From an uncultured Candidatus Cenarchaeum sp. (GTDB lineage: Archaea; Thermoproteota; Nitrososphaeria; Nitrososphaerales; Nitrosopumilaceae), in assembly GCA_958295735.1 (NCBI GenBank), contig OY282369.1:2332983-2396982 (forward strand): 64,000 nucleotides of DNA. Direction: 5' to 3'. The number at the start of each line of letters is the position of its first letter. Position 1 is the first letter of the stretch. Of the stretch, positions 17,082 through 52,736 are shown piece after piece. The position numbers were made by a program, and so were the translations under genes. The notes beneath the pieces are model-generated. The model ran no database searches. It saw only the letters and a list, made by a program, of their open reading frames with translations, and was not told the DNA's origin.

Positions 17082-17882
17082 TTGCGGGCGCCGGAGCCGG
17101 AGAAGAAAAGCCCGTTCCGATCGGTCATCATCCGCATCGGCATGGACGGGCCGTCGCCGGGCGCGGAGGCGTACGCCACAATCCAGCGGTCCACGGGCGC
17201 GTTCTACGGAACGGCGCGCAGGTACTACGGGAGGTTCGAGCCCACGTACATGTTCGCGGGGGTGATGAAGGAGCTCGTCGTAGAGGCGGGGTGCTTTGCC
17301 GGGATCCCCGCGCGGAGGCGCGGGGGAGACCGCCGCGCGGCAATCGCCCGCATGCTGGCGGACGCCCTGGAAGCGTACCGCGCGGCGGGCGCGGCGTGCC
17401 ACGTCAACCGCGTCCTCGACACGAGGATGACGGCCGGGGAGTACCTGGCCTCCACGAGGAGGGGTTCCATCCCGGCGATCGGCCCAGCGGATGCCGGGGG
17501 GCGCGCGGCCGCTGCTGGGGGCTGTCCGGCCGTGGAGGGGAACCTCCGCGACGGCGAGTGCGCCTGCTCCGCCCGCGAGGACCAGTTCGAGGCGGCGTGT
17601 CCCCGATGCGGCCGTGACACGGCCCTGGTCCACCGCGGGTACTATCCGCCGGACGGGGTAGCCGCGGCCGCCGCGGCGGAGCGGCGCCGCAGGCGCCACG
17701 AAGGCGAGCCGCGGCCCACCCTGCAGTGGGTGCGCCCCCACGGGAAGTGCCCCGCCTCCAACTCGCACACGCCCGTGATCCTCCCGGCCGGCGCGCCCCG
17801 CCGCTGGGAAACCGGCGACTTCATGCTGTGCAGGTCGTTCGGGATGCTGGATCCCATCCCCCACGTGTACGGCGTGGAATGA
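17082..17882 (+). CDS. Cys-rich LQWVRPHG-family protein, paralogue C
   Basis: A 266-residue protein from TTG 17082 (TTGCGGGCGCCGGAGCC, the conserved family start). Blocks in order: SVIIRIGMDGPSPG, YYGRFEPTYMFAGVMKELVVE, RAAIARMLADALEAYR, HVNRVLDTRMTAGEYLA, a Gly/Ala-rich insert, GECACSARE, CPRCGRDTALVHRGYY, EPRPTLQWVRPHGKCPASNSH and PHVYGVE. CPRC and HGKC are intact, so the putative zinc site is kept. The 3' quarter and everything downstream to 20622 is duplicated at 23411-26312. Function unknown. Confidence 0.7.
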   Translation: MRAPEPEKKSPFRSVIIRIGMDGPSPGAEAYATIQRSTGAFYGTARRYYGRFEPTYMFAGVMKELVVEAGCFAGIPARRRGGDRRAAIARMLADALEAYRAAGAACHVNRVLDTRMTAGEYLASTRRGSIPAIGPADAGGRAAAAGGCPAVEGNLRDGECACSAREDQFEAACPRCGRDTALVHRGYYPPDGVAAAAAAERRRRRHEGEPRPTLQWVRPHGKCPASNSHTPVILPAGAPRRWETGDFMLCRSFGMLDPIPHVYGVE

Positions 17883-18061
17883 CGGCCCTTCCGACCGGCC
17901 GGAGCGGGGCCCGGAGGCGCGGCCCCGCCCGCGTTCCGGGCAGCCCCGGGCCGCGGATGCCGCCGGCCGGACCCGCTCCCTGCGGGGGGCCCCGCCCCCG
18001 CCTGCCGGCGCGCCGCAGGCGGGGACGGCGCCGGCCGGCCCCCTCCCGAGGGCGCCCGCGG

Positions 18062-18706
18062 TCATGATCCCCCGCCGTCCGCACGATCCCAATGCCGGAG
18101 CCTGGCCTCCTCGGTGATCCTTGCCATGTAATCATCCGGTATCGCAACCGGCAACGCATCGACCGTGTGACGGATCACCTGCGGCCAGTCGCACGGCATG
18201 GGTGCATCGATCCAAGAATTTGCGTGCAGGAACTTGTACGCCAGGGTCCCCTCGCGCTCTTCCAATCCCAGGTATTTCAGGATCGTTACGCCCGTACCAT
18301 TGTCCGGTTCACGCGTGGAGCGGGGGTGCGGCGGCACGTCGTCCTTGTCAATGCACGTGACTACAAACGTCTGCCCCACCCCGATCCGATCTACGTGCGA
18401 GAACGCCGGCGGGCTGTAAACCTTCTCCCCGGTATTCCTGTATATGCCATAGTCGTTTTGCCCGAACCTCACCTCGATCGTCTTGTGGTCGACGATGGAG
18501 ATCTCCTCGAGAGTTGCATAGTACCTCTCGCCGTTTTTTTTCTCCACCTGCTCGTAGTGGATGTCGTGCAGCCGGTGATCGATGGTCGAGTTGGCCACCG
18601 GCAGGCGGTAGACAAAAAATCCGTACACCGGCTCGTAGACGAGCACAGCCAGTGCAATGCAGGACAGGACAGTGGCGGCCGCAAGCAATGTGCTGTTCAT
18701 CGGCAT
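18062..18706 (-). CDS. cassette 1 membrane partner
   Basis: A 214-residue protein with one N-terminal hydrophobic segment (about 7-31, LLAAATVLSCIALAVLVYEP) that acts as a signal anchor; the rest (VYRLPVANSTIDHRLHDIHY onward) is predicted to be outside. It starts 24 bases after the stop of the secreted protein at 18731-19933, so the two are probably co-transcribed from the TATA at 19960. The copy at 23748-24395 is almost identical, except for a dense patch (RNTGEKV here, GQEAWVKI there, residues about 89-96) and scattered changes. No known domain is recognised. Confidence 0.7.
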   Translation of the reverse strand: MPMNSTLLAAATVLSCIALAVLVYEPVYGFFVYRLPVANSTIDHRLHDIHYEQVEKKNGERYYATLEEISIVDHKTIEVRFGQNDYGIYRNTGEKVYSPPAFSHVDRIGVGQTFVVTCIDKDDVPPHPRSTREPDNGTGVTILKYLGLEEREGTLAYKFLHANSWIDAPMPCDWPQVIRHTVDALPVAIPDDYMARITEEARLRHWDRADGGGS

Positions 18707-18730
18707 AAAAAAAGGCGGTGTTGCCGTAGT

Positions 18731-19933
18731 TTATCTCTGTATGTATGCATTGGTCGTGCCCGTCAGTGACCCGCGCCATACGGAGGTAGAGCTAAACGGC
18801 AGACTGACCTCCTTGAAGTCAAACGCACATCCGTATCTTGCGTCAAATCCTGTACAATGCGTTACTATGCCAACATTGAATTCTGCGTGCACAACATTGT
18901 AGGTACTGGATCTGCTGTCGCCCGTGCCGCAAGATACTACACTGAGCTGCGCGCCAGGTTCTGTTGCATGCCTAGTCCCAGGTACGTGGAGGCTGATGTT
19001 GTATGTGCCGGTAGTGGTGACATCGGCCGAAATCCTGCAGTTGTCATAATTACAGTCCCAAGGTTCCATGTGTGCCATCGTGCGGTGTTCTGCATCCGGC
19101 CATACCGCGTATGCGGCCGGCAGAAAGTAGTCCATCATCGTGGCGGTTGGTATGGTTGTCGGGATCCCATCGGGAACATCCCTCTCGTACAGCTTGTTGT
19201 CCCTGACTTTCCTCGCGAACGTAGAGTCGCAGTCGGGATCATGGTCGCACGACGCAATGAGTGCGGTGATTGCCCAGAATGCCCCGTCGGTTGACGCGAG
19301 CTCGTACGGAATGTTGCCGTGCCTCGCCTGCTCGTCGAACGCGGCGACCGCCTGCGAGACGAGGGCCGGGCCGAGTTCGTCTTTCAGTGCGTCTATCCGC
19401 GCATCGATGTCCCTGGCGGTGTCCGGCACGGCGTATCTCGCGGCGACCCAGTCGTGGAAGCGCTTCTCCGGCTCTGTCGCGGAGTACGCGCCCTGCAGTT
19501 TGTCCAGCGCCTTGGCGAGAGCCACCAACTCGAAGCCGTTTCCGGCCTCGCCGGTCATGACATCGAAGTTTTGGGCCACCACGGCTGTCCTTTTCATGGC
19601 CTCGTTCCATCCGTTCTTCTCCGCGCCGTCGTATGCAACGTACGCCCTTATTGCCGCCTGCTTCTCCTCGAACTCCGGATCGCTGAGCTTTTGCGCCACC
19701 CATTCCGGGTCGTTCCTGTCCAGCATCACGCCGTCGGGGATCTTGCCGTACTGTTTTGCGGGATCGAACTCTTGCGTCCCAATCTCGCGTGTCGCGTTGC
19801 CGGTCCCGGTATCGTTGTATTGTGTGACAGGAAGTTTGTCGTCCATCACTTCGGACGCTGCGTAAGGCATTGCGGCAAATGGCAAAACCACAGCAGCAAT
19901 CATGGCAAACAAAACCGTCTTGTGTTTTTGCAT
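18731..19933 (-). CDS. cassette 1 secreted protein
   Basis: A 400-residue protein with a Sec-type signal peptide (MQKHKTVLFAMIAAVVLPFA, cleavage likely after MPYAA). The middle is helical and charged (residues about 35-250). The C-terminal 125 residues are Cys-rich (CDHDPDC, CNYDNC, VSCGTGD, HCTGF, YGC) and look like a disulfide-bonded beta-rich domain with TTTGTYNISLHVPG. The conserved leaderless position is ATG 19938 (ATGACATGCAAAAAC), but one A is missing compared with copy 2 (CACAAGACGG versus CACAAAGACGG). The ATG 5 bases further on (19933) is therefore the in-frame start. Residues 1-275 are nearly identical to copy 2, while the C-terminal domain differs at many positions. No family recognised. 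Confidence 0.7.
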   Translation of the reverse strand: MQKHKTVLFAMIAAVVLPFAAMPYAASEVMDDKLPVTQYNDTGTGNATREIGTQEFDPAKQYGKIPDGVMLDRNDPEWVAQKLSDPEFEEKQAAIRAYVAYDGAEKNGWNEAMKRTAVVAQNFDVMTGEAGNGFELVALAKALDKLQGAYSATEPEKRFHDWVAARYAVPDTARDIDARIDALKDELGPALVSQAVAAFDEQARHGNIPYELASTDGAFWAITALIASCDHDPDCDSTFARKVRDNKLYERDVPDGIPTTIPTATMMDYFLPAAYAVWPDAEHRTMAHMEPWDCNYDNCRISADVTTTGTYNISLHVPGTRHATEPGAQLSVVSCGTGDSRSSTYNVVHAEFNVGIVTHCTGFDARYGCAFDFKEVSLPFSSTSVWRGSLTGTTNAYIQR

Positions 19934-19947
19934 GTCATTGCCAATAC

Positions 19948-19969
19948 TACGTCCCTGCGTTATATAAGG
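19948..19969 (-). promoter_or_regulatory. cassette promoter P1
   Basis: Minus strand CTTATATAACGCAGGGACGTAG. The same YTTATATAACGCRGGNRCGYAG-like core precedes all five cassettes. The TATA (19960-19967) is about 25 bases from the start codons. Confidence 0.8.
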
Positions 19970-19979
19970 AGTTATATCC

Positions 19980-20622
19980 CGTTATGGCGTGCCTCCGCCA
20001 CGCGACCTCCCCCAATCACCATTCACGATCATGCTGGGGGCATCGAGGAGCGATGCCGACGTATGGGAGTCCGTGAGTTTTGTTTGGAACGGAGACAGAC
20101 GCGCTTCGCGCGGCGCAGATGTTGCGCCGTTGGTCGGCGCCGGCGCCCCCCCGCCCCGCGCGTTGAGCTACACCCGGGGGTTCCTGGCGGCGAGGGCGGA
20201 GTTGATCTTCCCGCCCCGCGCGAGTTCCTCCTCCAGCTGCTTGCTTGCTTCCCCGCGCGGGCGCGGGCCGCCGCCGCACGCCTTCTTGCACGCCCGTCCC
20301 TTGCCCCGCGTTATCCCCGCCTGCTTTTCGATCTTCTACTCCGGCCCCGCGTCTCCGCGCTGGGCCTTGCAACCGCCGCGTCGCGGGTCGCGAGGGTCCC
20401 GCCGCCGGCCCTCTTGCGGGAGCGCCTGAACTTCGCCGTTTGTGATGGGCAAGAACAACGAACTGTAAAAAAACCTCCAATTAACGCCGTTTAAAAACAT
20501 GGCGTAGAAATCCGCCTTCAACCAACCGCTGTTGCGCGGCCTGGGATTTTGCCCGCACGTCTGGAATGCCCGCGAATCTTCCTCACAAGCGTGATCTCGT
20601 GCCGTTCTCATCCATCCACTTA
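19980..20622. other. duplicated spacer with degraded coding remnants
   Basis: Contains TATGGCGTGCCTCCGCC (19983), a small perfect hairpin GCATCGAGGAGCGATGC (20040), and minus-strand frames with traces such as KQLEEELARGGKIN that need frame changes. The last 40 bases (20583-20622) are the final codons of the membrane gene seen intact at 26273-26578, cut by the IS. No intact gene. Confidence 0.45.
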
Positions 20623-23226: not shown

Positions 23227-23410
23227 CCTGGACAGGGGGTCCCCGGAGGCGGCCCGCCGCGCGGCGGCCGGGCCGGCGCCCGGCGGGGGGGCGTGGCCGT
23301 TCCCCGAGCCCGCGGACGCGGACGCGGACGCGGATGCGGATGCGGGCAAAACTGCCTCAAAATCGTGAGCTATTACGTCATTTGTCACTCGTGCGAATGC
23401 GCATTATCTC
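23227..23410. other. short spacer with hexamer repeats; possible truncated ORF
   Basis: Contains GCGGAC/GCGGAT hexamers repeated about six times (23306-23342). A minus-strand frame from 23388 (MTNDVIAHDFEAVLPASASA) runs into the IS right end at 23225 and may be a gene start cut off by the IS rearrangement. There is no independent support. Confidence 0.3.
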
Positions 23411-23569
23411 CAGTGGGTGCGCCCCCACGGGAAGTGCCCCGCCTCCAACTCGCACACGCCCGTGATCCTCCCTGCCGGCGCGCCCCGCCGCTGGGAAACC
23501 GGCGACTTCATGCTGTGCAGGTCGTTCGGGATGCTGGATCCCATCCCCCACGTGTACGGCGTGGAATGA
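23411..23569 (+). pseudogene. 3' fragment of Cys-rich paralogue C
   Basis: The last 52 codons of the gene at 17082-17882 (QWVRPHGKCPASNSH to PHVYGVE and stop), carried along at the edge of the duplication. There is no start or upstream domain. Confidence 0.85.
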
Positions 23570-23747
23570 CGGCCCTTCCGACCGGCCGGAGCGGGGCCCG
23601 GAGGCGCGGCCCCGCCCGCGTTCCGGGCGGCCCCGGGCCGCGGATGCCGCCGGCCGGCCCCGCCCCCTGCGGGGGCCCCGCCCCCGCCTGCCGGCGCGCC
23701 GCAGGCGGGGACGGCAGCGGCCGGCCCCCTCCCGAGGGCGCCCGCGG

Positions 23748-24395
23748 TCATGATCCGTCATCGTCTGCACGATCCCAATGCCGGAGCCTGGCTTCCTCGG
23801 TGATCCTTGCCATGTAATCATCCGGTATCGCAACCGGCAACGCATCGACCGTGTGACGGATCACCTGCGGCCAGTCGCACGGCATGGGGGCCTCGATCCA
23901 GGAGTTTGCGTGCAGGAACTTGTACGCCAGGGTCCCCTCGCGCTCTTCCAATCCCAGGTATTTCAGGATCGTTATGCCCGTGCCATTGTCCGGTTCACGT
24001 GTGGAGCGGGGGTCCGGCGGCACGTCGTCCTTGTCAATGCACGTGACTACAAACGTCTGCCCCACCCCGATCCGCTCTACGTGCGAGAACACCGGCGGGC
24101 TGTAAATCTTCACCCAGGCCTCCTGCCCGTATATGCCATAGTCGTTTTGCCCGAACCTCACCTCGATCGTCTTGTGGTCGACGATGGAGATCTCCTCAAG
24201 AGTTGCATAGTACCTCTCGCCGTTTTTTTTCTCCACCTGCTCGTAGTGGATGTCGTGCAGCCGGTGATCGATGGTTGAGTTGGCCACCGGCAGGCGGTAG
24301 ACAAAAAATCCGTGCACCGGCTCGTAGACGAGCACAGCCAGGGCAATGCAGGACAGGACTGCCGTAGCTGCAAGCAATCTGCTGTTCATCGGCAT
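23748..24395 (-). CDS. cassette 2 membrane partner
   Basis: A 215-residue signal-anchor protein, paralogue of 18062-18706. N-terminal hydrophobic segment at about 7-31 (LLAATAVLSCIALAVLVYEP). It begins 24 bases after the upstream secreted gene ends, as in cassette 1. It differs from cassette 1 mainly at residues about 89-96 (GQEAWVKI) plus about ten single changes (for example HPRST to DPRST, and a DDGS tail instead of GGGS). The long exact stretches on each side make the patch stand out. Function unknown. Confidence 0.7.
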   Translation of the reverse strand: MPMNSRLLAATAVLSCIALAVLVYEPVHGFFVYRLPVANSTIDHRLHDIHYEQVEKKNGERYYATLEEISIVDHKTIEVRFGQNDYGIYGQEAWVKIYSPPVFSHVERIGVGQTFVVTCIDKDDVPPDPRSTREPDNGTGITILKYLGLEEREGTLAYKFLHANSWIEAPMPCDWPQVIRHTVDALPVAIPDDYMARITEEARLRHWDRADDDGS

Positions 24396-24419
24396 AAAAA
24401 AAGGCGGTGTTGCCGTAGT

Positions 24420-25628
24420 TTATCTCTGTATGTATGCATTGGTCGTGCCCGTCAGGGACCCGAGCCATACAGTAGTAGGACTAAACGGCAGACTGATATT
24501 CGTCCGGTCGTTCGCACATCCATAGCCTACGTCAAATCCTGTCCAATACGTCACTACGCCAATACTGAATTCTGCGCGCGCAACATTGTAGGTACTGGAT
24601 TTGCTGTCGCCCGTGCCGCAAGAGACCACGCTGAGCTCTACACCGGGTCTTGTTGCATGTCTACCATCGGGGACTCTGAGATTGATGCTGTATGTGCCGG
24701 TAGTGGTGACGTCGGTCGAAATCTTGCAGTTGCCATAATTACATCTCCAAGGCTCCATGTGTGCCATCGTGCGGTGCTCTGCATCTAGCCATTCCGCGTA
24801 TGCGGCCGGCAGAAAGTAGTCCATCATCGTGGCGGTTGGCACGGTTGTCGGGATCCCCTCGGGAACATCCCTCTCGTACAGCTTGTTGTCCCTGACTTTC
24901 CTCGCGAACGTAGAGTCGCAGTCGGGATCATGGTCGCACGTCGCAATGAGTGCGGTGATTGCCCAGAATGCCTCGTCGGTTGACGCGAGCTCGTACGGAA
25001 TGTTGCCGTGCCTCGCCTGCTCGTCGAACGCGGCGACCGCCTGCGAGACGAGGGCCGGGCCAAGTTCGTCTTTCAGTGCGTCTATCCGCGCATCGATGTC
25101 CCTGGCGGTGTCCGGCACGGCGTATCTCGCGGCGATCCAGTCGTGGAAGCGCTTCTCCGGCTCTGTCGCGGAGTACGCGCCCTGCAGTTTGTCCAGCGCC
25201 TTGGCGAGAGCCACCAACTCGAAGCCGTTTCCGGCCTCGCCGGTCATGACATCGAAGTTTTGGGCCACCACGGCTGTCCTTTTCATGGCCTCGTTCCATC
25301 CGTTCTTCTCCGCGCCGTCGTATGCAACGTACGCCCTTATTGCCGCCTGCTTCTCCTCGAACTCCGGATCGCTGAGCTTTTGCGCCACCCATTCCGGGTC
25401 GTTCCTGTCCAGCATCACGCCGTCGGGGATCTTGCCGTACTGTTTTGCGGGATCGAACTCTTGCGTCCCAATCTCGCGTGTCGCGTTGCCGGTCCCGGTA
25501 TTGTTGTATTGTGTGACAGGAAGTTTGTCGTCCATCACTTCGGACGCTGCGTAAGGCATTGCGGCAAATGGCAAAACCACAGCAGCAATCATGGCAAACA
25601 AAACCGTCTTTGTGTTTTTGCATGTCAT
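24420..25628 (-). CDS. cassette 2 secreted protein
   Basis: A 402-residue protein starting at ATG 25628 (MTCKNTKTVLFAMIAAVVLP), about 25 bases from the TATA at 25650. The MTCKN leader is shared with the protease at 26584-27825, whose mature part is unrelated. The signal peptide ends near MPYAA. The N-terminal two-thirds is almost the same as in cassette 1. In the C-terminal Cys-rich domain many residues differ: CNYGNCKISTDV, VPDGRHATRPGVELS, YWTGFDVGYGCANDRTNISL and TTVWLGS replace CNYDNCRISADV, VPGTRHATEPGAQLS, HCTGFDARYGCAFDFKEVSL and TSVWRGS. One Cys (HCTGF) is lost here. No family recognised. Confidence 0.75.
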   Translation of the reverse strand: MTCKNTKTVLFAMIAAVVLPFAAMPYAASEVMDDKLPVTQYNNTGTGNATREIGTQEFDPAKQYGKIPDGVMLDRNDPEWVAQKLSDPEFEEKQAAIRAYVAYDGAEKNGWNEAMKRTAVVAQNFDVMTGEAGNGFELVALAKALDKLQGAYSATEPEKRFHDWIAARYAVPDTARDIDARIDALKDELGPALVSQAVAAFDEQARHGNIPYELASTDEAFWAITALIATCDHDPDCDSTFARKVRDNKLYERDVPEGIPTTVPTATMMDYFLPAAYAEWLDAEHRTMAHMEPWRCNYGNCKISTDVTTTGTYSINLRVPDGRHATRPGVELSVVSCGTGDSKSSTYNVARAEFSIGVVTYWTGFDVGYGCANDRTNISLPFSPTTVWLGSLTGTTNAYIQR

Positions 25629-25637
25629 TGCCAATAC

Positions 25638-25659
25638 TACGTCCCTGCGTTATATAAGG
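25638..25659 (-). promoter_or_regulatory. cassette promoter P2
   Basis: Identical to P1: CTTATATAACGCAGGGACGTAG on the minus strand, 10 bases upstream of ATG 25628. Confidence 0.8.
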
Positions 25660-25669
25660 AGTTATATCC

Positions 25670-26272
25670 CGTTATGGCGTGCCTCCGCCACGTAACTTCC
25701 CCCAACCACCGCTCACGATCATGCTGGGGGCATCGAGGAGCGATGCCGACGTATGGGAGTCCGTGAGTTTTGTTTGGAACGGAGACAGACGCGCTTCGCG
25801 CGGCGCAGATGTTGCGCCGTTGGTCGGCGCCGGCGCCCCTCTTGCCCCGCGCGCTGAGCTTCACCCCGGGTTTCCTGGCGGCGAGGGCGGGGTTGATCTT
25901 CCCGCCCCGCGCGAGTTCCTCCTTCAGCGCTTGCTTGCTTCCCCGCGCGGGCGCGGGCCGCTGCCGCACGCCTTCTTGCACGCCCGTCCCTTGCCCCGCG
26001 TTATCCCCGTCTGCTTTTCGATCTTCTACTCCGGCCCCGCGTCTCCGCGCTGGGCCTTGCAACTGCCGCGTCGCGGGTCGCGAGGGTCCCGCCGCCGGCC
26101 CTCTTGCGGGAGCGCCTGAACTTCGCCGTTTGTGATGGGCAAGAACAATGAACTGTAAAAAAACCTCCAATTAACGCCGTTTAAAAACATGGCGTAGAAA
26201 TCCGCCTTCAACCAACCGCTGTTGCGCGGCCTGGGATTTTGCCCGCACGTCTGGAATGCCCGCGAATCTTCC
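25670..26272. other. duplicated spacer, no intact gene
   Basis: Copy 2 of the stretch at 19980-20580, with TATGGCGTGCCTCCGCC at 25674 and the same small hairpin. A minus-strand frame reads KQALKEELARGGKINPALAA but is not open over a useful length. Confidence 0.45.
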
Positions 26273-26578
26273 TCACAAGCGTGATCTCGTGCCGTTCTCA
26301 TCCATCCACTTACAACTCATGTTAATTACGTGCGTTCCGTTGTCGTGTGATCTGTCTTTTGAAAGCGTGGGTTTTATTCCAGTATAACAGACAAACTTGA
26401 TTACGAGAAGATCATCGTCTTCGTAATTGATCATGTAATAGTAAACGGTAGAAAAGGCGACAAGGTATGCGATGCCGGCGACGATGACCACCTTGATCGT
26501 CGAAAACGCGGTTTTTTTCTTGTTCGGGGCGCGCTTTGCTACGTCGTACAGCGTGGCAAAAAAAGAAAGGGGGAGCAT
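26273..26578 (-). CDS. cassette 3 membrane partner
   Basis: A 101-residue protein starting at ATG 26578, 5 bases after the stop of the protease gene; in-frame sequence upstream of 26578 lies inside that gene. One hydrophobic helix at about 28-50 (TIKVVIVAGIAYLVAFSTVY) separates a short basic N-terminus (KRAPNKKK) from an outer domain with two Cys (KFVCYTG and NMSCKW). The last 13 codons lie inside the segmental duplication. The same codons at 20583-20622, cut by an IS, show that copy 1 once carried this gene too. Unrelated in sequence to the partners of cassettes 1/2 and 4/5. Confidence 0.65.
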   Translation of the reverse strand: MLPLSFFATLYDVAKRAPNKKKTAFSTIKVVIVAGIAYLVAFSTVYYYMINYEDDDLLVIKFVCYTGIKPTLSKDRSHDNGTHVINMSCKWMDENGTRSRL

Positions 26579-26583
26579 GGATC

Positions 26584-27825
26584 CTAGTCGAAAACCGGAG
26601 TCACGCCCATCTCGGACGTTATCTGGTTGATGGGCGTGTGGTACCTTCCCCACCAATCGTAGGTGGTTGCGATTCCGTACAGATCGCCGTTGTCTGTGAG
26701 CTCGACTACCGTGCCCCCGCTGTCGCCATGTTCAAACACCGCGTTGGATCTGACCAGGCCGCGGACATACTCGTCTTCCCAAAAGTGTATGACTGTTACG
26801 TCGACTGCCGAAACTATCCCGTTGTCAGCACCGCCAGCGTAACCCGTCTTTAGGATCGAGTCGTTTTGCTGCTGGTGCGCCGTCGTAGTCTTGGTAATCG
26901 TGTGTATTCCCGCGGCGAACACCTTGTTGTCGACCACGCTGGGGTCTATCGTGGTTATCCACGCGCAATCGCAGTAGGTGCCCCAATAAAATTTTTCGGT
27001 GTGTACCGTTCCAATGCTGGCGCCCGAGCTATCGGTCACAGTTCTGCCGAGTTTTCCGTCTGCACAGTGGCCCGCGGTAATCCATCCCAAGAGAGAACCC
27101 TTTTTTGCCTGAAAACCGAAACTGCAATGCTCGCCGCCGCCGGTTACTATTATGTGGTTCCCCCCAATTATCGGCGTGCATCTTGTTTGGTCGCACGCCA
27201 GCGGTTCCGCCACGGTGGAGTAGACGACGTGCCAGTCAGCATCGTGCGGCATCATCTCCTTGAGTTCGTCCACTATCTGGTCGATGTTCGTAGAATTCGC
27301 GATGTCCTTGTTCAATCCTATCTGGATCTCTTGGCTGGCTATGTCTATGCCTATGCTTGTGACGAACTTTATGGCGTGGGTGTTGTTGCCAGCGTTGGTG
27401 GAATTTAGCAGGTTTTCTTCAAAGGCGTTTCGCTGTGCGGCCAATTTGTCCAGTTTTGCCCGCGGTATGTCCTTGTCGTGGTTGCTTCTTTCAATCTCGT
27501 CCAGTTCGGACTTTATTTCGCCGATCCTCTCGCCGAACCTTTTCCTTTCGCTTTCGTCGGCCCCGGCCTTTAGTTTTTCCTGCAGGTCCTTTTCTTCGGC
27601 GTCCAGCTCGGTGATTTTCTTCAAGGTCAGCGTGAGATCCTCCTTTTCTTGGGCTCTCTCCAGGGTCTTCTCCCTCGGGTTTCTGTCCTCTAACGCCTCC
27701 GCAGGATTCGTCCCGGAAAAGGGCGCATCGCCGCTTGCCGCTTCCGCATAACTCAGCGTGCCGAACGGCAAAACCGCCGCGACAGCCAAAGCAAGAAGAA
27801 CAATCCCCGCGTTTTTGCAGGTCAC
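26584..27825 (-). CDS. secreted chymotrypsin-like (S1) serine protease, cassette 3
   Basis: A 413-residue protein. GTG start at 27825 (GTGACCTGCAAAAAC), 25 bases from the TATA at 27847. Signal peptide 1-29 (MTCKNAGIVLLALAVAAVLP...SYAEAA), with the same MTCKN leader as cassette 2. Residues 45-140 form a charged coiled-coil-like propeptide region. The catalytic domain (about 200-413) has H253 (ITAGHC), D286 (YCDCAWI) and S369 (EHGDSGGTV), the order and context of streptogrisin/alpha-lytic-type S1 proteases, with paired cysteines C211/C216, C234/C254 and C285/C287. It would cleave proteins outside the cell; the substrate is unknown. The adjacent membrane gene suggests a dedicated partner or self-protection. 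S1 proteases are uncommon in archaea. Confidence 0.85.
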   Translation of the reverse strand: MTCKNAGIVLLALAVAAVLPFGTLSYAEAASGDAPFSGTNPAEALEDRNPREKTLERAQEKEDLTLTLKKITELDAEEKDLQEKLKAGADESERKRFGERIGEIKSELDEIERSNHDKDIPRAKLDKLAAQRNAFEENLLNSTNAGNNTHAIKFVTSIGIDIASQEIQIGLNKDIANSTNIDQIVDELKEMMPHDADWHVVYSTVAEPLACDQTRCTPIIGGNHIIVTGGGEHCSFGFQAKKGSLLGWITAGHCADGKLGRTVTDSSGASIGTVHTEKFYWGTYCDCAWITTIDPSVVDNKVFAAGIHTITKTTTAHQQQNDSILKTGYAGGADNGIVSAVDVTVIHFWEDEYVRGLVRSNAVFEHGDSGGTVVELTDNGDLYGIATTYDWWGRYHTPINQITSEMGVTPVFD

Positions 27826-28289: not shown

Positions 28290-28374
28290 CGCGCCGCGGC
28301 CGGCCGCCGTGCGGGACGGCGCGCCCGGCCGGGGGGCGCGAGGCTTGACGGGCGGCGCCCGCTACGGGAACCTG

Positions 28375-29196
28375 ATGTCGTACAAGCACTACGCGCGCCC
28401 GGCCGCGTACGGGCTGTGCGGGAGCGGGGCGGCCAAGCGCAGGACCAGGCACCAGGACGGCATGCGGGAGATGCTGCGGGCCATGTTCGGGCACGGTGAG
28501 TGCACCACTTGGAACATGGCGAAGATCAGCCTCCGCACCGGGGACGCCTCGCTCGTCAGGGCCAAGGAAAAGGAGTACCGGAGGCTGCTCCTCGGGAGGC
28601 GCGATGCGAAAAGGCGGCCGGGCGGCATGCTTGACTCGGGCCTGGTGGTCCGGAGCGGCGGCGGGGCCCCCAGCAGGTACCGGCTCTCGCTGCACGGCAT
28701 CATGTACTGCATCGATGCCATGGATCCCGACGATGCGGAGATCGACGGCATGGCGCGCGCCCACGCCGGCGCGCTCCCGCGGGTGTTCGGCAGGTGGGGC
28801 GAGCTCGTGTCCGCGCTGGGCGGCGGCGCGTACACGCCCCTGCGCGTCATGTCCAAGGGCCTCCTGCTGGACAACCCACGGACGGCGGGGGAGGGCGGGG
28901 GCGCGCCGCTGTACGAGCTCATGTCGTTCCTGCACGCCGAGTACGGCGGGAGCTACGAGTCGATCCGGGAGCCCGAGCTGGCGGAGCAGGTGTCGTACTG
29001 GTTCTACACATTCCTGCTGTATCCGGGGGCGGCCGGCGGGGCGGGGCTGGGCGGCGCGCTGGGGGGCGACGGCGAGCTGCGCGGCTGGTACGCCGGGTTC
29101 CTCCGCCGGGCCCGCGGCTACTACGAGGAGAGGCTGCGCGCCATGCGCCGCGGGCTGCCCGCCGCGGGCCTGCGCGCTACCTCGAGTGCCTCCTGA
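28375..29196 (+). CDS. hypothetical protein with winged-helix-like N-terminus
   Basis: A 273-residue protein from ATG 28375 (MSYKHYARPAAYGLCGSG); TTG 28345 is an alternative start. Residues 20-120 read like a winged helix: MLRAMFGHGECTTWNMAK, then EKEYRRLLLGRRD, GMLDSGLVVRSG and SRYRLSLHGIMYCIDAM. A similar pattern occurs in thaumarchaeal HTH proteins as I remember them. The C-terminal half (Ala/Gly-rich, ELAEQVSYWFYTFLLYPG) is unassigned. The 3' end overlaps the convergent response regulator by 20 bases. It may be a regulator; the target is unknown. Confidence 0.6.
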   Translation: MSYKHYARPAAYGLCGSGAAKRRTRHQDGMREMLRAMFGHGECTTWNMAKISLRTGDASLVRAKEKEYRRLLLGRRDAKRRPGGMLDSGLVVRSGGGAPSRYRLSLHGIMYCIDAMDPDDAEIDGMARAHAGALPRVFGRWGELVSALGGGAYTPLRVMSKGLLLDNPRTAGEGGGAPLYELMSFLHAEYGGSYESIREPELAEQVSYWFYTFLLYPGAAGGAGLGGALGGDGELRGWYAGFLRRARGYYEERLRAMRRGLPAAGLRATSSAS

Positions 29197-29542
29197 TCGC
29201 CTCTTCGAGTTCCACGGCCCCGACGGGCTTGCTGAGCATCCCGGCAAGCGACCTGGACTTGGCCTCCCTGTACAGCCCGTCGTCCACGGCGTAGGCGGAC
29301 GTGAGGACGACCCTGGCGCCAGGATCCTGCTTCATTATGCGGAGGAACGTCTCGTACCCGTCGATTCCCGGCATCCTGAAGTCGAGCAGCACGAGATCCG
29401 GCTCGTACTCGGCGTACTTTTCGACCGCCTCCCTGCCGCCGGAGGCCTGGATCGTGCGGTGGCCGCCGCTGATCAGGGCGAGCTGGAGCGACTCGAGAAA
29501 GTCCCCGTCGTCGTCGACGACCAGGATCCTCTTGCCCGGCAT
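29177..29542 (-). CDS. CheY-like single-domain response regulator
   Basis: A 121-residue receiver domain: acidic pocket D10-D11, phospho-acceptor D54 (LVLLDFRMPG), T81 (LTSAYA) and K105 (LSKPVG). There is no output domain. Its ATG shares the A of the kinase stop codon (TGATG at 29542), so translation is coupled to the kinase gene. It probably acts by protein interaction, for example with transcription or motility machinery. Confidence 0.9.
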   Translation of the reverse strand: MPGKRILVVDDDGDFLESLQLALISGGHRTIQASGGREAVEKYAEYEPDLVLLDFRMPGIDGYETFLRIMKQDPGARVVLTSAYAVDDGLYREAKSRSLAGMLSKPVGAVELEEAIRRHSR

Positions 29543-30783
29543 CAGCCGACCCTCCCGGCGGGGAGGCTGACCGTGAACGTGACCGGATCGTTGCGGGCGG
29601 ATATGCCGCCCCCGTGCAGGCGCACCACGTTCCTGCAGCTGGTCAGGCCCAGGCCCGTCCCCCGCATCTTGGTGGTGAACAGGGGCTCGAATATCCTGGG
29701 CAGATCCCCTTCCGGTATCCGCGGCCCGGAGTTCTCGAACTCCAGCGTGACGGATCCGCCGCCCTCCGACAGCCTGACTGTTATGCCCCCGCCGCGCCCG
29801 CCCATGGCCTGGATCGCGTTGAGCACGAGGTTGGCGAACACGAACTCCATCTTGTCCGGATCGCACAGGACCTCCGCGTCGCCCCCCGGCAGCGCCACCA
29901 CCACGTTGCGCGGGACATCCACGGCGCCCAGCGACGACTCCAGCATCCCCCGCACGGACCTCTTCTCCTTGACGAGCGGGACGTCGCGCACGTGGTTGAG
30001 CACCCCGTCGATCTGATGCGACATGCGCCTCACGGAGCGGTCTATCAGGTCGAGGGCGCGGCCGGAGGCGGCCCCGCCGCCCCGCGCGCCCCTGATCGCG
30101 GTAGCCGAGTTCATGATCGTCCCCAGCGGGTTCTTCATGTCGTGCGCCATCGCGGAGGCCAGCTCGCCCACGGCGGCGAACTTTTCCGCCCTGACCGCCT
30201 GGGCGGCGTGCCTGCCGAACGCCCTCAGGATGAGGTAGATCATGAGCACGTGTATGGCCACGTTGCCGAACCCGAGCGCCGTCTGCAGCAGCATGAGGCC
30301 GGAGGACAGCGTGTCGACGTCCCTGCCCAGCTTTTCCGTGAGCGCGTCGGAGAGGCTTATCAGATCGCCGCCCGCCGCCTCCGGGACCGGCGCGGCCCCC
30401 CCGCCCCGCCCGGATGCCATGCCGCGGATCTCGCCGCTGTACCGCCCGAACGCCTCCCACACGGCATCCCAGTCCGCCCCGAAGCGGGGCGGGACGGGGT
30501 CGATCTCCACGCCGGCGGACGACCCCCCCGTCTTGAGGAACAGGATGTTGGCCTCCAGATCCCCGAGAGCCGCCAAGACGCGGCCGTAGTCGTCGCCGTG
30601 CAGCATCGCGCGGTGCGCCTCGGCCTGCACCACGATCGTCAGCATCCTGTTCTTGCCGGCCACGTTGACGACGTTTCCCGCCAGCCGGGTCTGCGACTCA
30701 AAGTGCACTATGGCCACGAAGCTCGCGACGATCAGTACTATCTGCACCGCGACCATGCATGTGATCTTGTGCCTGAATTTCAC
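29542..30783 (-). CDS. membrane sensor histidine kinase with PilJ-like input domain
   Basis: A 413-residue protein from GTG 30783, which lies 25 bases after a CATTTTATTGG box. TM1 at about 10-27 (MVAVQIVLIVASFVAIVHF). The outer region begins NVVNVAGKNRMLTIVVQAEA, the signature of PilJ-type sensor domains. TM2 at about 165-187. The kinase core has the H box with H214 (MAHDMKNPLGT), the N box with N322 (NLVLNAIQAMGG), NSGPRIPEGD, FEPLFTTK and GTGLGL (375-380). It phosphorylates itself and presumably the regulator encoded just downstream. The ligand is unknown. A longer open frame upstream to 32046 is GC-driven and not supported. Confidence 0.9.
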   Translation of the reverse strand: MKFRHKITCMVAVQIVLIVASFVAIVHFESQTRLAGNVVNVAGKNRMLTIVVQAEAHRAMLHGDDYGRVLAALGDLEANILFLKTGGSSAGVEIDPVPPRFGADWDAVWEAFGRYSGEIRGMASGRGGGAAPVPEAAGGDLISLSDALTEKLGRDVDTLSSGLMLLQTALGFGNVAIHVLMIYLILRAFGRHAAQAVRAEKFAAVGELASAMAHDMKNPLGTIMNSATAIRGARGGGAASGRALDLIDRSVRRMSHQIDGVLNHVRDVPLVKEKRSVRGMLESSLGAVDVPRNVVVALPGGDAEVLCDPDKMEFVFANLVLNAIQAMGGRGGGITVRLSEGGGSVTLEFENSGPRIPEGDLPRIFEPLFTTKMRGTGLGLTSCRNVVRLHGGGISARNDPVTFTVSLPAGRVG

Positions 30784-31950: not shown

Positions 31951-32043
31951 CTGCTGGCCGCGCACAATCGGGCAGAATCGACCATCGAATCTATTTTTTC
32001 GCGCGTTGGCTGCGCGTGCAAAAGGCACGCCGAAAGCCACAAT

Positions 32044-32072
32044 CAATTGTTATATAACGCGGGCGCGTAGAC
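32044..32072 (+). promoter_or_regulatory. cassette promoter P4
   Basis: GTTATATAACGCGGGCGCGTAG, the same core as P1-P3 but on the plus strand; TATA at 32050-32057, ATG at 32084. Confidence 0.8.
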
Positions 32073-32083
32073 GCCGCAAGAAC

Positions 32084-33220
32084 ATGAATGGCAAGACAAA
32101 ATACGCGATACCGCTCTTGGCGCTGGCGTTCCTGCTTCCAATCGGGCTGGCGGAAGCGCAGAACGCGCCGGGAGGAGAGGAGCCCGAACCGACTGGTCCC
32201 GCCGCGACCGTAAACGAAGACAACAAAGGGCAGGAAATCGACACGATAGAAAAGCTGACGGAGCCGCAAGAGTTTGTGGGACGGCACACAACCGACGCGA
32301 GACAGATTGGGGACTACCTGTACGTCAGGCACACGTACACCAGCGACGAGCTGGGGCATCTCGGGATCGACCGCGTCTTCCGCGAGGAGGTGCACCCAAT
32401 TCCGGCCGCCGCGTCCGGAGAGGAAATCTCACAGTTCGTCAACACTTCGACCACCAGCGAAAACTACACGATGAGCCTTGTCCACGGGGACGACGTTTCC
32501 ACGTTCGACAAAATGCGAATCAACGGCACGGAAATATCCGCGCAGTCGTTCCAGCAGTGGAACATCGTGAAGGCCGAAAAAACCGTCAGCACGCAGATAA
32601 ACAACGTGGACTACTGGCCGGTCTCCCACGAGGATTGGGCCTCCAAAAAATCGGGGCACGCATACCAGTCGTACGATCCGATCAACCTGATTTGGAGCGA
32701 CACGGTTTCCGGATCCGAGACGCTGATGTCGAAGGTAAGCTCCAAAATGCAAAGAGCCGGATGGGATGACATTTGCTTGTCTACCGATCTGTACGTCAAC
32801 ATTGGCGGAACGTGGACAAAGCAGGACAAGCACTATATTGACCAGTTTGGACCATTGCCGTGCTTCCAATACCACATCAGGGCGTGGGAAATCGACGGCA
32901 ACTCCATGATTGGCTCCGCGCACAAGGAAGATGCAGGCATTAAACTCCCCTTCGAAAGGATCGACCTGCGGCACACCTACCGCTCCGGTAACAGCTACAC
33001 AGAACAGCGTGTGTCTTACTTGCTACCGGCATACCACTCCCTGACCGGCTTCGACGTTGCCGAGGACGAGGCTGCGGGCGAGTTTGCCGGCGGCTGCTGG
33101 AGCGTTGCAAAGGATTCGCACTACCTTGGAAACCAATACACCAGAGAGACGATAAGGTTCGGCAGTGTTGAGAATACGGCAAGCAACAACGGTTACGCAA
33201 CGGTCATCCGTTGCTCCTAA
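32084..33220 (+). CDS. cassette 4 secreted protein
   Basis: A 378-residue protein from ATG 32084, about 30 bases after the TATA. Signal peptide 1-26 (MNGKTKYAIPLLALAFLLPI...AEAQ). The mature part starts acidic and Pro-rich (GGEEPEPTGPAATVNED), then shows a beta-rich domain with Trp/Tyr-rich segments (VDYWPVSHEDWASKK, INLIWSDTVSGS) and four cysteines (DDICLS, LPCFQYH, GGCWSVA, VIRCS). Residues about 303-317 (NSYTEQRVSYLLPAY) are the variable patch against cassette 5 (PSHTERDISTMLGGY), and a smaller change follows near the end (RFGSVE/RNGGVE). No family recognised. Followed after 12 bases by a membrane gene. Confidence 0.75.
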   Translation: MNGKTKYAIPLLALAFLLPIGLAEAQNAPGGEEPEPTGPAATVNEDNKGQEIDTIEKLTEPQEFVGRHTTDARQIGDYLYVRHTYTSDELGHLGIDRVFREEVHPIPAAASGEEISQFVNTSTTSENYTMSLVHGDDVSTFDKMRINGTEISAQSFQQWNIVKAEKTVSTQINNVDYWPVSHEDWASKKSGHAYQSYDPINLIWSDTVSGSETLMSKVSSKMQRAGWDDICLSTDLYVNIGGTWTKQDKHYIDQFGPLPCFQYHIRAWEIDGNSMIGSAHKEDAGIKLPFERIDLRHTYRSGNSYTEQRVSYLLPAYHSLTGFDVAEDEAAGEFAGGCWSVAKDSHYLGNQYTRETIRFGSVENTASNNGYATVIRCS

Positions 33221-34979: not shown

Positions 34980-35088
34980 CCCCTTCGTCGTTTTTACTAT
35001 GGCCGCGCACAATCGGGCAGAATCGGCCGGCGGCGCATTTTTTTCGCGCGTTGGCTGCGCGTGCAAAAGGCACGCCGAAAGCCACAAT

Positions 35089-35117
35089 CAATTGTTATAT
35101 AACGCGGGCGCGTAGAC
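35089..35117 (+). promoter_or_regulatory. cassette promoter P5
   Basis: Same as P4; TATA at 35095-35102, ATG at 35129. Confidence 0.8.
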
Positions 35118-35128
35118 GCCGCAAGAAC

Positions 35129-36265
35129 ATGAATGGCAAGACAAAATACGCGATACCGCTCTTGGCGCTGGCGTTCCTGCTTCCAATCGGGCTGGCGGAA
35201 GCGCAGAACGCGCCGGGAGGAGAGGAGCCCGAACCGACTGGTCCCGCCGCGACCGTAAACGAAGACAACAAAGGGCAGGAAATCGACACGATAGAAAAGC
35301 TGACGGAGCCGCAAGAGTTTGTGGGACGGCACACAACCGACGCGAGACAGATTGGGGACTACCTGTACGTCAGGCACACGTACACCAGCGACGAGCTGGG
35401 GCATCTCGGGATCGACCGCGTCTTCCGCGAGGAGGTGCACCCAATTCCGGCCGCCGCGTCCGGAGAGGAAATCTCACAGTTCGTCAACACTTCGACCACC
35501 AGCGAAAACTACACGATGAGCCTTGTCCACGGGGACGACGTTTCCACGTTCGACAAAATGCGAATCAACGGCACGGAAATATCCGCGCAGTCGTTCCAGC
35601 AGTGGAACATCGTGAAGGCCGAAAAAACCGTCAGCACGCAGATAAACAACGTGGACTACTGGCCGGTCTCCCACGAGGATTGGGCCTCCAAAAAATCGGG
35701 GCACGCATACCAGTCGTACGATCCGATCAACCTGATTTGGAGCGACACGGTTTCCGGATCCGAGACGCTGATGTCGAAGGTAAGCTCCAAAATGCAAAGA
35801 GCCGGATGGGATGACATTTGCTTGTCTACCGATCTGTACGTCAACATTGGCGGAACGTGGACAAAGCAGGACAAGCACTATATTGACCAGTTTGGACCAT
35901 TGCCGTGCTTCCAATACCACATCAGGGCGTGGGAAATCGACGGCAACTCCATGATTGGCTCCGCGCACAAGGAAGATGCAGGCATTAAACTCCCCTTCGA
36001 AAGGATCGACCTGCGGCACACCTACCGCTCCGGTCCCAGCCATACGGAGCGCGATATAAGTACTATGCTTGGGGGATACCACTCCCTGACCGGCTTCGAC
36101 GTTGCCGAGGACGAGGCTGCGGGCGAGTTTGCCGGCGGCTGCTGGAGCGTTGCAAAGGATTCGCACTACCTTGGAAACCAATACACCAGAGAGACGATAA
36201 GGAACGGCGGTGTTGAGAATACGGCAAGCAACAACGGTTACGCAACGGTCATCCGTTGCTCCTAA
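35129..36265 (+). CDS. cassette 5 secreted protein
   Basis: A 378-residue paralogue of cassette 4, identical over the signal peptide and about the first 300 residues. It carries PSHTERDISTMLGGY in place of the 15-residue patch of cassette 4, then returns to identity (HSLTGFDVAEDEAAGEFAGG) with only a short second difference near residues 357-359. All four cysteines are kept. The gene is intact and followed after 11 bases by its membrane partner. Confidence 0.75.
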   Translation: MNGKTKYAIPLLALAFLLPIGLAEAQNAPGGEEPEPTGPAATVNEDNKGQEIDTIEKLTEPQEFVGRHTTDARQIGDYLYVRHTYTSDELGHLGIDRVFREEVHPIPAAASGEEISQFVNTSTTSENYTMSLVHGDDVSTFDKMRINGTEISAQSFQQWNIVKAEKTVSTQINNVDYWPVSHEDWASKKSGHAYQSYDPINLIWSDTVSGSETLMSKVSSKMQRAGWDDICLSTDLYVNIGGTWTKQDKHYIDQFGPLPCFQYHIRAWEIDGNSMIGSAHKEDAGIKLPFERIDLRHTYRSGPSHTERDISTMLGGYHSLTGFDVAEDEAAGEFAGGCWSVAKDSHYLGNQYTRETIRNGGVENTASNNGYATVIRCS

Positions 36266-43457: not shown

Positions 43458-43570
43458 GGCGCGCATGCCGCGGGACCGGGATGGCTTGGGGTTGCCGTGC
43501 ATAACCCCCTCGGGGTCAACCCCCTCAACAGGGCGCGCGTGCCGCGGGACCGGGATGGCTTGGGGTTGCC
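43458..43570. repeat. 40-bp direct repeat at the giant gene start
   Basis: Forty bases from GGGCGCGCATGCCGCGGGAC (43458) recur at 43531 with one change (ATG to GTG). The first copy contains the proposed start codon. Confidence 0.85.
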
Positions 43571-52500: not shown

Positions 52501-52736
52501 ATCAATTTCCAGGTGAAATTCGAGGAGAACGTCACCAGGTTCGAACAGGGCGACGTCGAGCTTTCAAACGATACCGCGCACGGCGGCGTCGGCAACTTCT
52601 CGGGCAGCGGCGACTCGTACACGTTCGACGTCTCGCCCACGACCGACGGCGCGATACTGGTCGACGTCCCCGCGGGCGCAGCCCGTGATGCTGCCGGAAA
52701 CAACAACACACCGGCAAAACAGTTCTCGATGATATA
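43465..52736 (+). CDS. giant secreted NHL/Ig-like protein, 5' part (IS-interrupted)
   Basis: About 3,090 codons up to an IS insertion; the host frame resumes at 54039. A signal peptide lies at about residues 108-137 (SRRLLLLAAVLIPSAALFLA, then PPAHADS). The start is uncertain: ATG 43465 fits a TATA, but a more usual start (ATG 43745, MKGPRPPKSRGRRHR) is one base out of frame with the signal peptide. Five NHL propeller blocks (about 44.0-44.8, 45.1-45.8, 46.4-47.2, 48.4-49.1 and 51.0-51.7 kb) repeat GVAVDGSGxIYVADT. Between them are 11-12 Ig-like modules of the type SPTNAATINFQVKFxENVTG, GTILVDVPAGxARDxAGN, FSITYD. This architecture suits an adhesin or surface matrix protein. Translation of this part alone ends at 52755 after SRVNK. 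Confidence 0.85.

What the first reader, a model, noticed from the sequence alone, without database searches (positions are those of the whole stretch)
24420..27825. Shared leader fused to unrelated mature proteins
The cassette 2 protein and the S1 protease both start M-T-C-K-N and continue with similar hydrophobic cores ending at LSYAEAA/MPYAASE, under the same promoter, yet have unrelated mature parts. This looks like a promoter-leader module joined to different cargo, as in polymorphic secreted systems.
Basis: partly seen in the sequence, partly recalled or inferred. Interest (0 to 1): 0.65.

Follow-up and report, generated by a model that had tools for sequence, protein, structure and literature searches.

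The report
Shared archaeal secretion leader, unrelated cargo
A family of ammonia-oxidising archaea reuses one promoter-plus-signal-peptide block in front of many unrelated secreted proteins, which looks like a plug-in export front end for an accessory, possibly competitive, protein arsenal.

Summary
The window pair shares a promoter, about 100 nt upstream, and a leader (own-genome blastn E 9e-19), but not mature parts. Mature parts: an alpha-lytic/streptogrisin-type S1 protease and a protein with no Pfam or PDB match.

A 5-leader profile found 47 leaders at E<=1e-3 in 22 of 200 family genomes. A region-wise permuted profile found 0 of 200 at E<=0.01. The 39 proteins with enough mature sequence form 20 clusters; profile-profile comparison merges only protease clusters. 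Leader similarity is independent of cargo. Upstream DNA is shared within genomes across unrelated cargo. In the own genome the promoter core TTATATAACGCRGG occurs exactly 5 times, always before a predicted secreted protein in this window.

Best reading: a mobile promoter-signal-peptide module giving co-regulated Sec export of an accessory arsenal. 21 of 34 leader genes are followed by a membrane-protein ORF, versus 40 of 312 controls. An effector-immunity role is plausible but untested. "Polymorphic secreted system" is a good analogy, not a demonstrated membership.

The parts
24420..25628 (-). cassette-2 (casB) secreted protein, 402 aa from the ATG at 25628; no Pfam, NCBIfam or PDB match
25539..25628 (-). 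casB leader MTCKNTKTVLFAMIAAVVLPFAAMPYAASE
25644..25683 (-). casB composite promoter GGCACGCC-N18-TTATATAACGCAGG
24795..24812 (-). LPAAYA (residues 273-278): conserved [IL]PxAxA junction before the variable C-terminal domain; proposed second processing site (inference)
23748..24395 (-). 215-aa protein with N-terminal TM segment, 24 nt after casB stop (partner)
26584..27825 (-). S1E-type (alpha-lytic protease-like) secreted protease, GTG start; triad H253, D286, S369; helical pro-region
27736..27825 (-). protease leader MTCKNAGIVLLALAVAAVLPFGTLSYAEAA
27841..27880 (-). protease composite promoter GGCACGCC-N18-TTATATAACGCGGG
26273..26578 (-). 101-aa single-TM protein, 5 nt after the protease stop (partner)
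18731..19933 (-). cassette copy 1 (casA), 400 aa from a shifted ATG; N-terminal part near-identical to casB, C-terminal domain diverged
19954..19993 (-). casA composite promoter
18062..18706 (-). casA partner, 214 aa, N-terminal TM
32024..32063 (+). composite promoter of the first MNGK gene
32084..33220 (+). MNGK1, predicted secreted 378-aa protein under the same promoter, with a different leader
35069..35108 (+). composite promoter of the second MNGK gene
35129..36265 (+). MNGK2, near-identical copy of MNGK1
28348..29196 (+). 282-aa 'GNLMSYK' protein, no Pfam, divergent from the protease; next to response regulator and histidine kinase genes. Candidate regulator (inference)
29177..30760 (-). 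response regulator and histidine kinase genes (gene boundaries approximate, read from ORFs)
   Evidence: kinase homologue in L135 matches HisKA/HATPase_c

Best explanation
A 5' module (promoter plus a specific ~30-residue Sec-type signal peptide) is reused in this archaeal family in front of unrelated secreted proteins. Recombination or duplication brings the module to new cargo, or cargo to the module. Each lineage keeps its own promoter version, shared by its unrelated cargos, so these genes should be expressed together and exported by one route (shown: shared DNA; inferred: co-expression and export). The signal peptide is removed at the AxA site and helical pro-regions then separate from variable C-terminal domains, in one family probably at a second [IL]PxAxA site (inferred). 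Cargos include active-looking alpha-lytic-type proteases and many unknown domains; a membrane-protein gene often follows. I think the set is an accessory arsenal acting on neighbours, hosts or viruses, with the membrane partner protecting or anchoring (inferred, weakest step). In the window a neighbouring kinase / response regulator / GNLMSYK cluster is the best candidate for the control (inferred).
For: Specific leader: 47 hits E<=1e-3 in 22 of 200 family genomes (tally; five hits are the profile's own sequences). Permuted control 0 of 200 at E<=0.01 against 23 of 200 for the real profile. Unrelated cargo: 39 mature parts in 20 clusters; hhalign on 17 clusters (136 pairs) joins only clusters 0-12 and 0-8, all proteases. 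Leader decoupled from cargo: leader aa identity between genomes 0.513 for different cargo (680 pairs) and 0.502 for same cargo (38 pairs); cargo homologues with other signal peptides exist (L020, L028, L029, L016). DNA homology of the module: same-genome different-cargo upstream identity 0.494 vs null 0.345 (0 of 2000 permutations), leader DNA 0.699 vs 0.647 (P 0.004); codon identity at identical residues 0.58 between genomes vs 0.39 expected; G206/G082 82% over 375 nt at otherwise non-collinear loci with different cargos; G011 and G228 near-identical upstreams before different cargos. Promoter: TTATATAACGCRGG 5 times in the own genome, all here; composite form in 5 of 250 family genomes, 16 sites, reversed control 0 in every listed genome. 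TCAATnnnnATTGA at -51 to -58 in 12 of 42 leader genes of 7 genomes and several cargo clusters. Partner: 21 of 34 vs 40 of 312 (P 1e-9) and vs 16 of 83 controls with hydrophobic N-terminus (P 1.4e-5). Mobility: leader-protease plus ArsR-type HTH on a contig with a terminase.
Against: In the window pair codon identity is at chance level, and the protease leader scores weakly by itself (E 0.03 to casB), so a recent transfer is not shown there. The window's MNGK genes share the promoter but not the leader, and in G217/G223 four of nine composite promoters precede genes without a clear signal peptide, so promoter and leader are not strictly one unit. 13 of 34 leader genes lack a membrane partner; cluster 3 has soluble neighbours. 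The GNLMSYK trio is widespread (50 of 200 genomes) and mostly not next to leader genes: 2 of 30 loci examined. No expression, export, cleavage or toxicity data exist here. Codon expectation used mature-part codon usage, which may differ from signal peptides. 10 of 44 leader genes are under 150 aa, many probably broken.
Confidence: 0.72

Rival explanations
1. One ancient secreted protein family whose mature part diverged beyond recognition while the signal peptide stayed conserved, as in conotoxin or frog skin peptide precursors (recalled analogies). No swapping is needed.
For: Leader conserved much more than mature parts; a helical, often charged pro-region follows the leader in several clusters; same-cargo homologues often keep a leader.
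Against: Proteases have a trypsin-type fold with catalytic triad and profile comparison finds no link to the other clusters. Leader similarity carries no cargo signal. Cargo homologues with different signal peptides exist. G206/G082 share module DNA but not cargo.
Confidence: 0.12
2. Ordinary Sec signal peptides that look alike because of shared composition and lineage bias, with promoter similarity from local duplication in the window.
For: All leaders have n-, h- and c-regions and an AxA-like end; a local 2.9-kb segmental duplication is real.
Against: Permuted-region control 0 of 200. Patchy, family-restricted distribution: 26 of 300 class genomes, 25 of them in the family. Codon and upstream DNA identity above expectation. 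The same promoter recurs in other genomes.
Confidence: 0.05
3. A nutritional exoenzyme and adhesin regulon rather than an arsenal: proteases and binding proteins for scavenging or host attachment, the TM partner being an anchor. The module reading stays; only the function differs.
For: Proteases are the largest cargo cluster. One cargo C-terminus resembles Leptospira adhesin Lsa23 below cut-off. Sponge AOA are reported with expanded extracellular proteases (PMC6790972, passages seen).
Against: Patchy occurrence even within one genus (22 of 95 genomes), frequent short or broken copies, viral carriage and the sharp C-terminal divergence between casA and casB fit conflict better than housekeeping nutrition.
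Confidence: 0.3

Closest known systems
Bacterial polymorphic toxin systems (PMC3482391: title and abstract start seen in listing; general features recalled)
   Same: Constant N-terminal trafficking part joined to variable C-terminal parts; adjacent partner gene; casA/casB share an almost identical N-terminal part and differ after one junction.
   Different: Here the constant part is only promoter plus signal peptide (~30 aa), no trafficking domain or toxin domain is recognised, and immunity is not shown.
VARTIG module of Thermococcales (PMC8416519, passages read)
   Same: Archaeal, hypervariable secreted or surface protein at the 5' end of an operon, followed by small membrane proteins; function open between conflict and recognition.
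   Different: VARTIG is one Ig-domain protein family; here many unrelated cargos share a leader and promoter. The two were not compared by sequence here.
Conserved signal-peptide classes such as YSIRK, ESPR, KxYKxGKxW and halo_sig_pep (recalled, no call)
   Same: A signal peptide conserved beyond generic features on unrelated secreted proteins.
   Different: Different sequence and lineage; those were recalled as peptide motifs, while here the promoter DNA is shared too. No NCBIfam or Pfam model above cut-off covers the leader.
Alpha-lytic protease / streptogrisin (MEROPS S1E, label recalled), for the protease cargo
   Same: Fold, triad and large N-terminal pro-region.
   Different: Archaeal, long coiled helical pro-region, shared leader and TM partner gene.

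Membership tests
Polymorphic toxin system | constant N-terminal region with variable unrelated C-terminal parts | tested here: met
   leader on 20 mature clusters, 15 groups after profile comparison of 17
Polymorphic toxin system | recognisable toxin domains (nuclease, deaminase, etc.) | tested here: not met
   Pfam/NCBIfam on cargo representatives: no toxin domain above cut-off
Polymorphic toxin system | cognate immunity protein next to the toxin | tested here: inconclusive
   a membrane-protein ORF follows in 21 of 34, enriched over controls; protective function not testable
Polymorphic toxin system | dedicated trafficking domain or secretion system beyond a signal peptide | tested here: not met
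   only the signal peptide is shared across clusters
Sec-type signal peptide | charged n-region, hydrophobic core, AxA-like end, no twin arginine | tested here: met
   alignment of 35 leaders; no signal-peptide predictor was run
S1E serine protease (protease cargo only) | trypsin-like fold with His-Asp-Ser triad | tested here: met
   H253, D286, S369 invariant in 9; alpha-lytic protease and streptogrisin matches
S1E serine protease (protease cargo only) | proteolytic activity after pro-region processing | not testable with these tools
   needs expression and assay
VARTIG | Ig-domain protein of the arCOG07710 type | not tested
   no arCOG profiles here; no cargo representative matched an Ig family in Pfam

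The most novel reading that the evidence does not exclude
An archaeal effector-immunity system defined by its 5' end: one mobile promoter-signal-peptide block, under local two-component control, launches a rapidly swapped set of secreted effectors, each paired with a membrane immunity protein, and moves on viruses and integrated elements of ammonia-oxidising archaea. C-terminal domains are replaced at a second processing site.
Probability: 0.3. Interest if true: 0.85.

Novelty: new variant of a known kind. Interest (0 to 1): 0.64.

Why it matters
Ammonia-oxidising archaea are abundant, yet little is known of what they secrete or how they compete. A short, searchable 5' tag marks a whole set of otherwise unannotated secreted proteins, so their arsenal and its regulation can be listed and tested directly. 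It would also be a clear archaeal case of promoter-plus-signal-peptide reuse on unrelated genes.

Tried and rejected
Dedicated two-component regulator: the GNLMSYK gene is in 50 of 200 family genomes, typically beside a response regulator and kinase in the 30 loci examined, but a leader ORF was found within the fetched flanks in only 2 of 30 loci, plus G228. Its closest homologues (G013, G223, G217) lie on contigs with the composite promoter. Kept as a candidate only.

Universal inverted-repeat operator: mean best arm 5.74 vs 4.91 in shuffles, but most single upstreams are not significant and a far-upstream control gave 5.13. Only TCAATnnnnATTGA and GGCACKCC-N18-TTATATAA are kept.

Second processing site as a general rule: P.A.[AG] in 8 of 29 vs 2.7 expected (P 0.0025), but the motif was chosen after looking. 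Kept for the cassette family only (6 of 6 full-length members).

Structure of casB: mean pLDDT 38.5, unusable. PDB profile searches of cassette and three other cargo families gave nothing useful; weak UDP-glucose dehydrogenase hits for a fourth (best 0.0073) are judged chance. Cluster 3 was aligned but not searched.

Rows dropped before counts: from 56 leader-like ORFs, two duplicate or cut copies and ten under 30 bits were left out of the 44. Five of 44 have too short a mature part for clustering, giving 39; genes under 150 aa or near a locus end were left out of the partner test, giving 34. hhalign used 17 of 20 clusters. The partner control was void (a one-letter exclusion string removed every control) and was redone; my motif recount used too narrow a slice, so one search is cited.

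Literature: searches listed no paper that I recognised, from titles and abstract starts, as describing this leader or promoter; only open-licence PMC papers are held, and of the listed papers only passages of PMC6790972, PMC8416519 and PMC6563490 were read.
Full report
WHAT WAS CLAIMED AND WHAT IS THERE. Both ORFs are where stated. The two starts lie in one DNA repeat family. The own genome (3,166,131 bases, one contig, 96.75% complete; the window is G000:C1:2332983-2396982) has no other good copy of the block besides cassette copy 1. Homology runs from about -100 to +80 nt and fades where the signal peptide ends. The promoter half is better preserved (83% of 60 nt) than the coding leader (63.5% of 96 nt), and codon identity in this pair is at chance level (0.375 of 16). 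So the pair is an old, not a fresh, relationship.

THE LEADER IS A SPECIFIC, FAMILY-WIDE SEQUENCE. Whole-protein searches of 61 genomes (own included) already hit leader-only segments in G011 and G029, on otherwise different proteins. A five-row leader profile searched in 200 family genomes gave 47 hits at E<=1e-3 in 22 genomes (counted; five are its own rows). A 35-row profile matched 22 of 95 genomes of genus g11 and 26 of 300 genomes of the class, 25 of them in the same family, the other marginal (G041, 8.8e-4). The genus-mate G001 has none. A profile permuted within n-, h- and c-regions matched 0 of 200 at E<=0.01, against 23 of 200 for the real one; the tool rightly notes that an empty search has no positive control. 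Named records with the leader are Nitrosopumilus, Nitrosarchaeum and related MAGs (12 loci).

UNRELATED CARGO. From the fetched loci, 44 leader genes (>=30 bits) in 24 genomes were kept; 39 have enough mature sequence and form 20 phmmer clusters. Profile-profile comparison of the 17 clusters long enough joins only the proteases (0 with 12 and 8), leaving 15 groups. The window protease is alpha-lytic/streptogrisin-like by sequence profile (best 5e-20) and by fold (pLDDT 75.1, Foldseek 1.6e-13), with an invariant H253, D286, S369. Most other cargos have no Pfam, NCBIfam or PDB match; one resembles Lsa23 weakly, below its cut-off.

LEADER AND CARGO HAVE SEPARATE HISTORIES. Between genomes, leaders on different cargo are as alike (0.513, 680 pairs) as leaders on the same cargo (0.502, 38 pairs); permutation shows no cargo signal (P about 0.6). 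Within genomes, unrelated cargos share upstream DNA (0.494 vs 0.345 null, 0 of 2000) and leader DNA (0.699 vs 0.647, P 0.004). Examples: G011 genes with different cargo have almost identical upstreams, and G228 has three copies. Across genomes, G206 and G082 share 375 nt at 82% around promoter and leader at otherwise non-collinear loci with different cargos. Codon identity at identical residues is 0.58 against 0.39 expected, so the leaders look related by DNA descent rather than convergence. Homologues of cassette and protease with other signal peptides exist.

THE PROMOTER. TTATATAACGCRGG occurs five times in the own genome, all in this window, before casA, casB, the protease and two further predicted secreted genes, MNGK1 and MNGK2. 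All five, and six sites in G217/G223, have GGCAC[GT]CC exactly 18 nt upstream. In 250 family genomes the composite occurs at 16 sites in five genomes, with no reversed-control match in any listed genome. Behind the ten G013, G217 and G223 sites, six genes start with a hydrophobic leader and four do not; the G132 site has no convincing ORF. In AT-rich genomes another element, TCAATnnnnATTGA, sits at -51 to -58 in 12 of 42 leader genes from 7 genomes and several cargo clusters.

NEIGHBOURS. 21 of 34 complete leader genes have a membrane-protein ORF starting within -30 to +60 nt of the stop, against 40 of 312 other ORFs in the same loci and 16 of 83 with a hydrophobic N-terminus. Proteases of G128, G178 and G082, a cluster-17 gene of G226 and a viral protease lie next to a similar HTH gene; the two tested match Pfam ArsR. 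In the window, G013 and G228 the leader protein is divergent from a GNLMSYK gene followed by response regulator and kinase; in G223 and G217 the composite promoter lies on the same contig, 2.7-3.0 kb beyond the start of that gene. This is a lead for regulation, not proof: the trio occurs in many genomes without leader genes nearby.

MOBILITY AND DIVERSIFICATION. One IMG/VR contig carries a leader protease with its HTH gene; terminase matches lie elsewhere on it. Cassette copies A and B differ at 8 of 813 nt up to the LPAAYA motif and 65 of 372 nt after it; dS is 0.011 for residues 1-270 and 0.31 for the rest. The [IL]PxAxA motif is kept in all six full-length cassette-type proteins, with little conservation after it. 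This suggests C-terminal domain replacement at a processing junction (inference).

MECHANISM AND LIMITS. Shown: shared DNA module, unrelated cargo, leader-cargo decoupling, enriched membrane partner. Inferred: co-expression, Sec export, two-step processing, arsenal function, immunity by the partner. Against: the MNGK genes show promoter without this leader; partners are missing or soluble in 13 of 34; no toxin domain is recognised; 10 of 44 leader genes are shorter than 150 aa.

COMPARISON. It works like a polymorphic secreted system at its 5' end but fails two defining features tested here (toxin domains, dedicated trafficking domain), so it is not filed as one. VARTIG of Thermococcales (PMC8416519, passages) is the nearest archaeal analogue in layout. 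Ten literature searches listed no paper recognisable as describing this leader or promoter. PMC6563490 (passages) describes thaumarchaeal integrated elements; the passages seen do not mention it.

Noticed in passing
window 32084-33220 and 35129-36265 (+): Two MNGK genes are identical over 1137 nt except for patches at nt 906-946 and 1074-1080, a mosaic pattern suggesting gene conversion from a divergent donor.
   Followed up: partly
window 17721-20619 and 23408-26306: 2.9-kb segmental duplication (about 97%) of cassette plus partner, separated by IS630-like (DDE_3) transposase genes that are themselves duplicated.
   Followed up: partly
window 19920-19967: Copy A of the cassette lost one base in the leader, but a second ATG five bases downstream keeps the hydrophobic core and cargo in frame (MQKHKTVLF...).
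   Followed up: yes
L134, L140, L183: A second recurring leader, MKTR(F/L)LIII..., heads runs of co-directional predicted secreted genes with different bodies.
   Followed up: no
L183, IMG/VR contig 3300028610_002655: A terminase-bearing contig carries a leader S1 protease beside an ArsR-type HTH gene.
   Followed up: partly
L027 residues 176-286: C-terminal domain resembles Leptospira surface adhesin Lsa23 (NF047489, E 5e-10, far below cut-off).
   Followed up: no
L201/L205 (G223 C6, G217 C8): The composite promoter also precedes a related pair of about 220-aa proteins without a signal peptide, which may be cytosolic members of the same regulon.
   Followed up: no
window 43465-52755 (+): A 3096-aa open frame was listed and not examined.
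   Followed up: no
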